A stretch of DNA of 64,000 nt from Frankiaceae bacterium. GTDB lineage: Bacteria; Actinomycetota; Actinomycetes; BP-191. Positions 20,940 to 26,922 of the stretch are shown one piece after another (positions within the stretch are counted from its first letter, which is position 1; each line of letters starts with the position of its first letter). Both the position numbers and the translations under genes were made by a program. Under the pieces are notes generated by a model, which saw only the letters and a program-made list of their open reading frames with translations, made no database searches and was not told the DNA's origin. The stretch lies in NCBI GenBank assembly GCA_030840645.1, contig JAVEEC010000012.1:42204-106203 (forward strand), written 5' to 3'.

Positions 20940-21407
20940 CTAGTGGTGACCGTCGTCGCCGTGACCGTGGTCGTCACCGTGGTCGTGACCGTCGCCGTGG
21001 TCGTCGTCGCAGTCCTTGTCCTTGTGGTGCGGGTCGCACGGATCCTGGTTGCCCGAGACGGGACGGCAGTGCTTGTTCTTCTGGTCGTCCTTGCCCTTGC
21101 CGTCGTCGCAATGGTTGTCGTGGTCACCGTCGTGGTCGCCGTCGTGGTCGCCACCACCGCCCCCGCCACCGCCGTGGTCGCCACCACCGCCCCCGCCACC
21201 GCCGTGGTCGCCGCCCCCACCACCACCGCCACCCTTGGGGCCGCCGTTGTCGGACTGCTGCGAGCCCTGCAGGGTGAGGTCGAGAGCGGTGCTACGCCCG
21301 GTCCCGGGGTCGACGCGTTCGAGGGAGAGCAGGCCGCCGAAGCTCGCGGACCCGATGAGGGCCACGACGACGGACTTCCGGATGCTCAGCCGGGTCACCA
21401 ATGTCAT
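20940..21407 (-). CDS. Secreted/anchored Gly-rich, His-Asp-rich low-complexity protein with C-terminal Cys residues
   Basis: GGGGGGGGDHGGGGGGGGDHGGGGGGGGDHDGDHDGDHDNHCDDGKGKDDQKNKHCRPVSGNQDPCDPHHKDKDCDDDHGDGHDHGDDHGHGDDGHH. Confidence 0.6.
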   Translation of the reverse strand: MTLVTRLSIRKSVVVALIGSASFGGLLSLERVDPGTGRSTALDLTLQGSQQSDNGGPKGGGGGGGGDHGGGGGGGGDHGGGGGGGGDHDGDHDGDHDNHCDDGKGKDDQKNKHCRPVSGNQDPCDPHHKDKDCDDDHGDGHDHGDDHGHGDDGHH

Positions 21408-21508
21408 ACCGGCTTCCTTCCGTCGTTGGAAACGGTCAAACGTCCCGAACCAGGAAACTAGCCGCGTTCGTCGCACCCAGGCAACTCGCAGACGCGAAGG
21501 CCAGCGAT

Positions 21509-23393: not shown

Positions 23394-23466
23394 GCGCTCG
23401 TAGCTCAACGGATAGAGCATCTGACTACGGATCAGAAGGTTGGGGGTTCGAGTCCCTCCGAGCGCG
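23394..23466 (+). tRNA. tRNA-Arg (ACG)
   Basis: GCGCTCG/CGAGCGC acceptor, CTACGGA anticodon loop, GGTTCGAGTCC T-arm. Confidence 0.96.
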
Positions 23467-23470
23467 CTCA
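23425..23470 (+). repeat. attL-like repeat (3' half of tRNA-Arg)
   Basis: Identical to 25991..26036. Confidence 0.9.
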
Positions 23471-23559
23471 TGAAGTCGCAGGTCAGAGGCTTGCTCGGCT
23501 GTCGCTGACCTCGCCTCATAGGGTGGGTCGGTGGCGCGGGTCGCCGCGAAGCGGGGTGA

Positions 23560-25665
23560 GTGCGTTTGAAGGCGTCTGAGGCGCGGCTGCTGGATCTGCT
23601 CGCCAAGGGCAGCCAGTTCGTCATCCCGATTTACCAGCGGACGTACTCCTGGACCGACAGCGAGTGCGAGCAACTGTGGTCGGACATCGTGCGCGCGGGC
23701 AACGACGACCAGCTCGACGCGCATTTCGTCGGGTCGATCGTGCACGTCGAGAAGGGCCTGTCGAACCTCGTCTCGCAGGAACCGAACCTCGTCATCGACG
23801 GCCAGCAACGGCTCACGACGACGACGCTGATCCTGGCCGCTCTCGCGCAGGCGCTGGACACCCTTCCGGAAGAGGGACGCGAGCCGCTCGACGGGTTCTC
23901 GCCGAAGAAGATCCGCAACCGCTACCTGGTGAACAGCGACGAGGACGGCGAGAGGTTCCACAAGCTTCTGCTGTCGCAGGGCGACAAGGAGACGCTCAAG
24001 GCGATCGTCCAGCAGGTGGACTCCCCGCCGCAGCCGTCGGAGCGGGTGGCCGCGAACTTCGAGCTCTTCCGGATGAAGCTCGGCGCGCCCGGGCTCGACC
24101 TCTCTGCGGTGTGCCGGGGGCTGGCAAAGCTCACGGTTGTCGACATCCGGCTCGACCGTACGCACGACAACCCGCAACTGATCTTCGAATCCATGAACAG
24201 CACGGGGCGGCGGCTCTCGCAGGCGGACCTGATCCGCAACTACGTCCTCATGGGGCTCAAGCCGTCGGTTCAGGAGGCGATGTACGCGAAGTACTGGCGC
24301 CCCATGGAGGCGGAGTTCGGGCAGGCGGTCTACGAGGAGCAGTTCGACGAGTTCGTCCGTCACTTCCTGACCGTCCTCACCGGTGAGATCCCGCGGCTAG
24401 GTGACATCTACGAGGCGTTCAAGACGTACGCGCGCTCGGTGCAGTCGGAGGGCGAGACGGTCGAGCCGTTGCTGAGCCAGCTTCGCGACTACTCGCGCCG
24501 GTACTGCGCGGTCGCGCTTGGCCATGAGAGAGACCCTCGGCTCGCGGCTACGTTCCGCGACCTGCGGGAGATCAAGGCGGACGTCGTCTACCCGTTCCTG
24601 CTCGAGCTGTACACCGACTACGAGCTCGGGACGCTGATGGCGGCAGAGCTCGGCGACGTCGTTGACCTGACCGCGTCATACCTGTTCCGGCGCGCCGTCT
24701 GCCGCGTGCCCACCAACTCCCTCAACACGACGTTCGCGACGTTCTCGAAGGCGCTACGGAAGGACCGGTACCTCGACAGCGTCAAGGCGCACTTCCTCGG
24801 GATGAAGAGCTACCGCGCCTTCCCGACCGACGACGAGTTCTTCGCGGCGCTGACGTCGTCGGACCTCTACAACTTCAAGCGGCGGACGTACTTCCTTCGC
24901 CACCTCGAGAACTATGGGCGGAAGGAGCACGTCGTGATCGAGGACTACACGATCGAGCACATCCTCCCCCAGAACGAGAACCTCTCCGAAGCGTGGCGCG
25001 CCGCCCTCGGCTCGGACTGGCAGGAGGACCAGGCGAGGTACCTGCACACCCTCGGCAACCTCACGCTCACCGGCTACAACAGCGAGTACAGCGACCACCC
25101 GTTCGTGAAGAAGCGCGACATGGAGGGTGGCTTCAAGGACAGCCCGCTGCGGCTGAACAGGGGGCTCGGTGCGCTGGAGGAGTGGGGCGCGGTGCAGATC
25201 GCGGAACGCGCGGAGCGCCTGGCGAAGCAGGCTCTTGAGATCTGGCCACGGCCGGTGCTGGACGGCGAGACGCTGGCCCAATTCCAGGAGGTGCGGCCGG
25301 AGACCGGGTTCTCGATCGAGGACCATCCGAATCTGCTCCCGCCGGCACGGCGGGCGCTGTTCGAGAGGTTCCGCGGCGAGGTGCTCGCGCTCAATCCGAC
25401 GGTCACCGAGTACTTCCTCAAGCTCTACGTCGCCTACAAGAGCGAGACGAACTTCGTCGATGTCGTCCCCCAGGTCGCGCGGCTGCGGCTGTCGCTCAAC
25501 CTGCCGTTCGAGGCGCTGCACGACGAGCGCCGGCTCGCGTGGGACGTCACCGGCAAGGGCCACTGGGGGAACGGCAACATTGAGGTCGCGCTGGACGAGT
25601 CGAGCGACTTCGCGTACGTGATGGGGCTCGTCAGGCAGGCGTACGAGTTCCAGCTCGGCGAGTAG
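23560..25665 (+). CDS. GmrSD-like protein: DUF262 + DUF1524 (HNH) + C-terminal DUF5655-like region; putative type IV restriction/anti-phage protein
   Basis: IPIYQRTYSW, VIDGQQRLTTTTLI, IFESMNSTGRRLSQADLIRNYVLM; EHILPQN..YLHTLGNLTLTGYNSEYSDHPF; C-terminal FLKLYVAYKSETNFVDVVPQVARLRLSLNLPF. Confidence 0.93.
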   Translation: MRLKASEARLLDLLAKGSQFVIPIYQRTYSWTDSECEQLWSDIVRAGNDDQLDAHFVGSIVHVEKGLSNLVSQEPNLVIDGQQRLTTTTLILAALAQALDTLPEEGREPLDGFSPKKIRNRYLVNSDEDGERFHKLLLSQGDKETLKAIVQQVDSPPQPSERVAANFELFRMKLGAPGLDLSAVCRGLAKLTVVDIRLDRTHDNPQLIFESMNSTGRRLSQADLIRNYVLMGLKPSVQEAMYAKYWRPMEAEFGQAVYEEQFDEFVRHFLTVLTGEIPRLGDIYEAFKTYARSVQSEGETVEPLLSQLRDYSRRYCAVALGHERDPRLAATFRDLREIKADVVYPFLLELYTDYELGTLMAAELGDVVDLTASYLFRRAVCRVPTNSLNTTFATFSKALRKDRYLDSVKAHFLGMKSYRAFPTDDEFFAALTSSDLYNFKRRTYFLRHLENYGRKEHVVIEDYTIEHILPQNENLSEAWRAALGSDWQEDQARYLHTLGNLTLTGYNSEYSDHPFVKKRDMEGGFKDSPLRLNRGLGALEEWGAVQIAERAERLAKQALEIWPRPVLDGETLAQFQEVRPETGFSIEDHPNLLPPARRALFERFRGEVLALNPTVTEYFLKLYVAYKSETNFVDVVPQVARLRLSLNLPFEALHDERRLAWDVTGKGHWGNGNIEVALDESSDFAYVMGLVRQAYEFQLGE

Positions 25666-25990
25666 CCGCGCGTCAGTTAGGGGGCGCAGGCGGGCGCGGG
25701 TCACGTCGACCAGTCGGCGGACTGCCGCGCGGGAGCGGGCGCCGCGGGTTGCTTCGGCGACGAGGTCGCGGACCGCGGCCGTGCATGGACCGCGTGGCGC
25801 GGTTGTAGGCGTCGAGCGGTACGCACGGTCGGACGCTCGCGGTCGAAGGCCACAACCTTCTAACAGAGTTCTAACGAACGGGTCGATCTGGGGGATCATG
25901 GCCCGGCCGGGACGTCACGGACGGACCGCGCGACCGGCACCACTGAGCACGAGGAAGATCAAAGAGACTGCGGGACGCTCTCGGCGACGG

Positions 25991-26036
25991 CTACGGATCA
26001 GAAGGTTGGGGGTTCGAGTCCCTCCGAGCGCGCTCA
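25991..26036 (+). repeat. attR-like repeat: orphan 3' half of tRNA-Arg
   Basis: Perfect 46-bp copy starting in the anticodon loop; no 5' half. Confidence 0.9.
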
Positions 26037-26214
26037 CAACGTCGCAGGTCAGAGGCTTGCACGGCTGTCTGACCTCGGGGTTGGGACCTCCAGAGGCCCG
26101 ACTTCTAACGAACTTCGAACGGAGCTCTCCCGGTCGCGCGGCGTTCCTGACAAGTCGCCGGGCGTCCGTCACCAAGGCGGTCGCCCCCGAGCCGGGCGTC
26201 GTGCGACCGGGGGG

Positions 26215-26922
26215 TCAGCTGGGCAGCACGAACTCCTCGACGCCGACGAGCCGGTATCCGGCACCGACCTCCGTGAGCAGGTGGACGGGGTTCGCCGGCT
26301 CCGCCTCGATGATCCGGCGGAGGTGGCTGACGTAGAGCCGCAACGAGCTGGCCTCGCTGCCGTGCGACGACCCCCACACCGCGTTGATGAGCTGGTGCCG
26401 GGTGAGGAGCTTGCCCGGGTTGGCGAGGAACGCGTCCAGCAGCGCCCACTCCGTGGCCGTGAGCCGGACGGGCTCGCCGTCCCTGGTGACGGTGCGCGTG
26501 GCGAGGTCCACGACCGCGCGGCCCGCACGGACGACAGGCGGCCGCGGCGCTGCAGCGGTCTCGGCGCGGCGGAACAGCGCGCGCAGCCGCGCGAGTAGTT
26601 CGTCGAGGCTGAACGGCTTGATCACGTAGTCGTCGGCGCCGGCGTCGAGGGCCGCGACCTTGTCGGCGTCGCGGTCCAGCGCGGAGAGGATCAACACGGG
26701 GACGACCGAGAAGGTACGGAGCCGGCGGACGACCTCGGGCCCCTGGATGCCGGGCAGCCCCATGTCGAGGACGACCAGGTCGGGCGCTGCCGTCGCGGCG
26801 ATCTCCAACGCGGTCTCGCCGTCCGCCGCGCCCAGGACGCGGTAGCCCTCGCTGGAGAGCCTGGACGTCAGGGCCGAGAGGATGTGCCGCTCGTCGTCGA
26901 CCACGAGGATCGTCGCGTTCAT
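26215..26922 (-). CDS. OmpR-family response regulator, KdpE-like
   Basis: [84 protein letters not shown]. Confidence 0.85.
   Translation of the reverse strand: MNATILVVDDERHILSALTSRLSSEGYRVLGAADGETALEIAATAAPDLVVLDMGLPGIQGPEVVRRLRTFSVVPVLILSALDRDADKVAALDAGADDYVIKPFSLDELLARLRALFRRAETAAAPRPPVVRAGRAVVDLATRTVTRDGEPVRLTATEWALLDAFLANPGKLLTRHQLINAVWGSSHGSEASSLRLYVSHLRRIIEAEPANPVHLLTEVGAGYRLVGVEEFVLPS

What the first reader, a model, noticed from the sequence alone, without database searches (positions are those of the whole stretch)
23394..26078. Minimal tRNA-Arg island carrying a single GmrSD-like anti-phage gene and no integrase
Seen directly: intact tRNA-Arg(ACG), then one 701-aa DUF262/DUF1524/DUF5655-like gene, then an orphan perfect 46-bp copy of the tRNA 3' half (25991..26036) starting in the anticodon loop. 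Known: tyrosine integrases often use tRNA anticodon or T-loop sequences as att cores, and DUF262/DUF1524 proteins include GmrSD type IV restriction and related defence proteins. Inferred: a roughly 2.6 kb cargo-only element that has lost its integrase, or is mobilised in trans, leaving a one-gene defence insertion.
Basis: partly seen in the sequence, partly recalled or inferred. Interest (0 to 1): 0.75.

Follow-up and report, generated by a model that had tools for sequence, protein, structure and literature searches.

The report
Decayed one-gene tRNA-Arg defence island
A single phage-defence-like gene sits between a tRNA-Arg gene and a copied half of that tRNA, and it looks like the leftover of integrase-driven mobile elements that once stacked up at this site and have since lost their integrase, which is a known kind of relic rather than a new class of mobile DNA.

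Summary
tRNA-Arg(ACG) at 23394-23467 is followed by one intact 701-aa GmrSD-family gene (23560-25665) and a perfect 46-bp copy of the tRNA 3' half (25991-26036). The similarity runs on to 79 nt at 95%. No integrase lies between the copies. Two same-genus genomes lack the gene. One (G001) carries a 10.4-kb island at the same tRNA, bounded by the identical core, with a tyrosine integrase and different defence-like cargo. The other (G002) has one core and a short scar of such an element. So this tRNA is a real, variable integration site.

New here: the orphan copy is not a plain element end. The pair TTCTAAC-N4-TTCNAAC occurs only twice in the 3.5-Mb genome, at -133 and +70 around the orphan core, the distances at which related elements and viral contigs carry P and P' arm-like repeats. 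The tRNA-proximal core has none. The orphan therefore looks like a P-core-P' junction between two tandemly integrated elements, and the island like a decayed remnant resembling a cis-mobilisable element (CIME). Self-mobility is unlikely; mobilisation in trans is unproven. Integrase-less att-flanked cargo islands of 1-13 kb are already described.

The parts
23394..23467 (+). tRNA-Arg(ACG), intact; integration target
   Evidence: ARAGORN
23425..23470 (+). tRNA-proximal att core (tRNA 3' half from the anticodon loop plus 3 nt)
   Evidence: exact 46-bp match to 25991-26036; identical core bounds an integrase island in G001
23471..23515 (+). post-core stretch R1 with CGCAGGTCAGAGG motif and a hairpin; probably element-derived
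   Evidence: repeat of 26037-26076; RNA fold z about -2; the same motif follows another element's tRNA-Arg half (L069), follows tRNA-Asn in L157, and occurs at integrase loci on other contigs
23560..25665 (+). 701-aa single-chain GmrSD-family protein (DUF262 + DUF1524 HNH + DUF5655), sole cargo
   Evidence: Pfam, PADLOC, DGQQR and EHI(L/M)PQ...GNLTLT motifs conserved in the 10-sequence alignment
25858..25875 (+). P-arm-like direct repeat pair TTCTAAC-N4-TTCTAAC, 133 bp before the orphan core
   Evidence: pair pattern found only twice in the 3.5-Mb genome; position matches distal arms of other tRNA-Arg elements
25991..26036 (+). orphan att core (tRNA-Arg 3' half)
26037..26076 (+). post-core stretch R2, similar to R1, hairpin
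26103..26120 (+). P'-arm-like pair TTCTAACGAACTTCGAAC, 70 bp after the 43-bp orphan core, outside the supposed island
   Evidence: position matches P' arms (+40 to +75) of other elements
26215..26922 (-). KdpE-like response regulator (named from its sequence, no family search run); first recognisable chromosomal gene to the right
   Evidence: DNA from 26229 on is 87% identical to G001 contig C22 over 4.2 kb, where it is not next to tRNA-Arg

Best explanation
The segment is a decayed, CIME-like remnant of tyrosine-integrase elements that insert into the 3' half of tRNA-Arg(ACG). Each insertion rebuilds the tRNA with an element-borne 3' half and leaves a second half-copy at the far end. Two elements of the same arm specificity probably stood in tandem, so the orphan core is the P-core-P' junction between them. 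One deletion then removed the integrase end (P' arm and int) of the first element, leaving only its distal cargo gene. A second removed the body of the second element and joined the site to the KdpDE-like genes. The surviving gene is a single-chain GmrSD-type enzyme that most likely restricts modified foreign DNA: an NTP-binding DGQQR domain plus an HNH nuclease. Shown by sequence: the duplication, the gene and its motifs, absence of an integrase, alternative cargo with an integrase at the same core in a congener, and the unique repeat pairs on both sides of the orphan core. Inferred: that the pairs are integrase arm sites, the tandem stage, the two deletions, immobility, and restriction activity.
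For: G001 has tRNA-Arg, a convergent integrase (PF00589 1.9e-22, Arm-DNA-bind_4), Replic_Relax, WhiB, CAP12-PCTIR_TIR and AAA-like genes, and the identical core 10.4 kb away. G002 has one core plus a 79-bp fragment, 82% like the sequence after the tRNA core in G001 (integrase 3' end and arms), then the G001 right flank. In other Actinomycetes islands at this tRNA a repeat pair lies +40 to +75 after the tRNA core, and for several the same repeat lies -105 to -138 before the orphan core. Viral contigs L141, L149 and L152 show P-core-P' around one core. In G000 the pattern TTCTAACNNNNTTCNAAC occurs exactly twice in 3.5 Mb, both beside the orphan core (0.00 expected in the window). A tandem with a second P' arm and integrase match after the orphan core exists in L106. 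GC of the segment is 66.5% against 72.6% for the window. The left flank keeps the tRNA-Ser(TGA), tRNA-Ser(GCT), tRNA-Arg order of G002. CIMEs of 1.2-13 kb derived by deletion are described (PMC7563491), and integrase-less islands at ssrA in Dehalococcoides (PMC3146451).
Against: No integrase or element with TTCTAAC arms was found in 395 class genomes or IMG/VR, so arm identity is by position and repetition only. Random 60-70-nt stretches show some 7-mer pair at period 11/12 in about 4% of cases. The P'-like pair has period 11, not 12, and one mismatch. No second-element remnant is recognisable between 26121 and 26214. Codon usage of the gene is not unusual (distance 0.092 against 0.07-0.12 for neighbours). 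The right synteny break could have another cause, including assembly.
Confidence: 0.62

Rival explanations
1. A single element inserted at tRNA-Arg, then lost its integrase and P' arm by deletion. The TTCTAAC pair outside the orphan core is host sequence or coincidence. It is still a deletion relic, but not a tandem one.
For: Minimal number of steps; one core at each end; the distal P-arm pair is in the right place; cargo at the distal end, as in G001.
Against: The outer pair repeats the same TTCTAAC word at the P' distance, and the pattern occurs nowhere else in 3.5 Mb. The outer side also carries the R motif that follows cores in other elements.
Confidence: 0.2
2. Cargo-only cassette mobilised in trans: a 2.57-kb circle of GmrSD with P arm and core, but no P' arm or integrase, was integrated by the integrase of an element already resident at tRNA-Arg. 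That resident was later deleted except for its P' side.
For: Compact unit between two perfect cores; P arm of the same word as the neighbouring P' pair; GmrSD relatives sit next to tRNAs elsewhere, for example 232 bp after tRNA-Met at the edge of a phage-like contig (L165).
Against: No second copy of the cassette at any tRNA-Arg island examined, no GmrSD in the congeners, and no other TTCTAAC-armed site in this assembly that would mark a helper. In-place deletion explains the same sequence.
Confidence: 0.1
3. Assembly artefact: the draft genome (152 contigs, 7% contamination) misjoined at the 46-bp repeat or at the right edge.
For: Fragmented draft assembly; the right flank is not syntenic with G001 or G002.
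Against: Both flanks belong to this genus (left: tRNA order as in G002; right: 87% to G001). The TTCTAAC pairs on both sides of the orphan core tie that junction together. The two 79-nt copies differ at several positions.
Confidence: 0.06

Closest known systems
CIME (cis-mobilisable element; decayed ICE/IME that kept att sites), PMC7563491; integrase-less ssrA islands of Dehalococcoides, PMC3146451
   Same: Cargo between duplicated att cores, no recombination module, small size (classical CIMEs 1.2-13 kb), arises by deletion and tandem accretion.
   Different: Here one end lacks the arm-like repeat and the other looks like a junction rather than an attR. Conjugative ancestry and mobilisation are not shown.
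Tyrosine-integrase elements in tRNA-Arg(ACG) of Actinomycetes (G001 island, L103-L110)
   Same: Same or near-identical 43-bp core, distal orphan copy, paired arm-like repeats, integrase convergent with the tRNA in most.
   Different: Those mostly keep the integrase and the tRNA-proximal P' pair; this one has neither.
GmrSD family type IV restriction enzymes (Eco94GmrSD, BrxU)
   Same: DUF262-DUF1524 single chain, DGQQR motif, (I/L/V)(E/D)HIxPQ and LGNLxL motifs as listed in PMC4619093.
   Different: Extra C-terminal DUF5655; no activity data. BrxU is not among the sequence or fold matches to solved structures.
DndI (PDB 9jfl), phosphorothioation-sensing DUF262 protein
   Same: Best solved-structure match by sequence (8.2e-10) and by fold (3.7e-8, low TM 0.35).
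   Different: No DndC homologue (TIGR03183) in this genome, so phosphorothioate sensing has no support here.

Membership tests
CIME | flanking att core repeats retained | tested here: met
   46-bp exact cores at 23425 and 25991
CIME | no integrase and no transfer module | tested here: met
   only one gene between the cores; no integrase hit in window 15000-40000
CIME | derived by deletion from an ICE or IME | tested here: inconclusive
   G001 element at the same core has Int and Replic_Relax but no conjugation gene recognised among the ten genes tested; no ancestor with TTCTAAC arms found
CIME | functional attL/attR and cis-mobilisation after accretion | not testable with these tools
   tRNA-proximal end lacks the P' pair; no excision assay possible
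GmrSD family | DUF262 (GmrS) with DGQQR motif | tested here: met
   Pfam 1.2e-32; VIDGQQRLTT at residues 78-87
GmrSD family | DUF1524 (GmrD) with HNH-type motif | tested here: met
   Pfam 1.7e-26; IEHILPQ and LGNLTLTGYN
GmrSD family | modification-dependent, NTP-stimulated DNA cleavage | not testable with these tools
   needs biochemistry
DndI/SspE phosphorothioate-sensing systems | host phosphorothioation genes (dndC) present | tested here: not met
   TIGR03183: no match in G000, G001 or G002; SspD not tested with its own model

The most novel reading that the evidence does not exclude
A minimal cargo-only cassette (one defence gene, one core, one arm) that is moved in trans by integrases of co-resident tRNA-Arg elements: a satellite of integrative elements that encodes no mobility gene of its own.
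Probability: 0.1. Interest if true: 0.6.

Novelty: new member of a known kind. Interest (0 to 1): 0.33.

Why it matters
It shows how a defence gene can be left fixed at a tRNA site after the element that brought it has gone. It also gives a simple reading rule: the paired arm repeats beside a tRNA half-copy help distinguish a clean element end from a tandem junction, so integrase-less islands can be read as relics or as possibly mobile units. The same tRNA-Arg site in one genus is seen in three states: full element, scar, and one-gene relic.

Tried and rejected
Integrase remnant between the cores: none by tblastn with the G001 integrase and nothing obvious in six-frame reading. GmrSD in other tRNA-Arg islands: none. 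Donor element with TTCTAAC arms: none in IMG/VR or 395 class genomes. GmrSD relatives as a conserved cassette: the eight of their loci checked for repeats show no long flanking direct repeats apart from a 27-nt family in L073 and a 53-nt pair in L082 (not followed up), none of the 14 has a G001-type integrase within about 8 kb, and only L077 has a tRNA. Clean empty site in G002: rejected, it keeps a scar of an element's P' side. Phosphorothioate-sensing role: no dndC. The AlphaFold model was weak (pLDDT 65), so little weight is put on fold matches.

Full report
Observation. tRNA-Arg(ACG) lies at 23394-23467 on the + strand. A perfect 46-bp copy of its 3' half, starting in the anticodon loop, lies at 25991-26036; with mismatches the repeat runs to 79 nt at 95%. 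Between them is one gene, 23560-25665, encoding 701 aa with GmrSD_N, GmrSD_C and DUF5655 domains, all above their cut-offs. No integrase was found between the copies or elsewhere in window 15000-40000. The segment has 66.5% GC against 72.6% for the window, but its codon usage is ordinary.

The tRNA is a real and variable integration site. Two genomes of the same genus were compared. G001 has the same tRNA, the same core repeated 10.4 kb downstream, and in between a tyrosine integrase whose 3' end faces the tRNA, a possible Xis-like gene, Replic_Relax, WhiB, a CAP12-PCTIR_TIR protein, an AAA-like ATPase and DUF6932. It lacks the GmrSD gene. G002 has a single core followed by a 79-bp piece that is 82% like the sequence after the tRNA core in G001 (integrase 3' end), then the sequence that in G001 follows the orphan core: a scar, not a virgin site. 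Across 297 Actinomycetes genomes, 89 carry the 43-bp core with up to 3 mismatches, several of them twice. Most of the two-core loci fetched have an integrase match just after the tRNA.

A reading rule for the ends. Around these cores, exact repeat pairs of 7-9 bp recur: +40 to +75 after the tRNA-proximal core with period 12 in most integrase-bearing loci, and -105 to -138 before the orphan core with period 11 or 12. In several islands (G001, L104, L106, L107, L108) the same word is used on both sides, as expected for P' and P arms of one integrase. Viral contigs L141, L149 and L152 show both pairs around one core. Random 60-70-nt stretches show some such pair in about 4% of cases, so single cases are weak but the series is not. 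In some islands the scan found no pair on one side (for example L103 and L105), so the rule is not universal.

Applying it to the window. TTCTAAC-N4-TTCTAAC stands at 25858-25875, 133 bp before the orphan core, and TTCTAACGAACTTCGAAC at 26103-26120, 70 bp after the 43-bp orphan core. The pattern occurs nowhere else in the 3.5-Mb genome. The tRNA-proximal core has no pair. So the orphan copy has the geometry of a complete P-core-P' site and the tRNA side has lost its arm. Both cores are followed by the CGCAGGTCAGAGG motif, which also follows another element's tRNA-Arg half (L069) and tRNA-Asn in L157, and occurs at integrase loci on other contigs. The simplest history is two elements in tandem, where the junction is P-core-P', followed by loss of the integrase end of the first and of nearly all of the second. 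L106 shows such a tandem with a second integrase match still present. This history is inferred; no intermediate was found.

Flanks. To the left, the order tRNA-Ser(TGA), tRNA-Ser(GCT), tRNA-Arg is the same as in G002, so the tRNA is probably in its ancestral place. To the right, DNA from 26229 is 87% identical to G001, but there it lies on another contig away from tRNA-Arg. A deletion or rearrangement ended near 26121-26228. A misassembly cannot be excluded without reads.

The gene. Its closest relatives in reference genomes are 56-72% identical over nearly the full length, in Phytoactinopolyspora, Promicromonospora, Nocardia, Nocardioides, an alphaproteobacterium and others; relatives also occur on plasmids, in a few phage records and on IMG/VR contigs. 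On an Arthrobacter and a Sulfitobacter plasmid it stands among unrelated genes, in Sulfitobacter near a type I RM system. The motifs that define GmrSD in PMC4619093 are intact. The best solved relative is DndI, but no dndC is present, so a type IV-like action on modified foreign DNA is the more likely role. That activity is inferred from family membership only.

Verdict. The 'minimal mobile island' reading is better replaced by a decayed remnant of stacked elements, a CIME-like relic of a kind already described (PMC7563491; PMC3146451). Trans-mobilisation remains possible but has no positive evidence.

Noticed in passing
L038:5399-15870 (G001 contig C12): 10.4-kb tRNA-Arg element with integrase, Replic_Relax, WhiB and a CAP12-PCTIR_TIR defence-like protein beside an AAA-like ATPase and a small unannotated protein.
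   Followed up: partly
L103:6066-8398 (G209): A 2.3-kb unit between two tRNA-Arg half copies with an integrase match and room for little else; an integrase-only counterpart to the cargo-only relic.
   Followed up: no
L111:1190-2206 (G121): Two orphan tRNA-Arg half copies 974 bp apart, with arm-like pairs of different words; an apparent att remnant without clear cargo.
   Followed up: no
L165:47-2460 (IMG/VR 3300039159_000367): A solitary GmrSD relative 232 bp after tRNA-Met at the edge of a phage-like contig (my reading from ORFs), with an ACATCAACG pair at period 11 in between.
   Followed up: partly
L157:1424-1520 (G038): The motif GTCGCAGGTCAGAGGCTTG directly follows tRNA-Asn(GTT); it may mark element ends at several tRNAs in Actinomycetes.
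   Followed up: no
window 20940-21476: Low-complexity Gly/His/Asp-rich ORF (HDDHG-type repeats) on the - strand, not examined.
   Followed up: no
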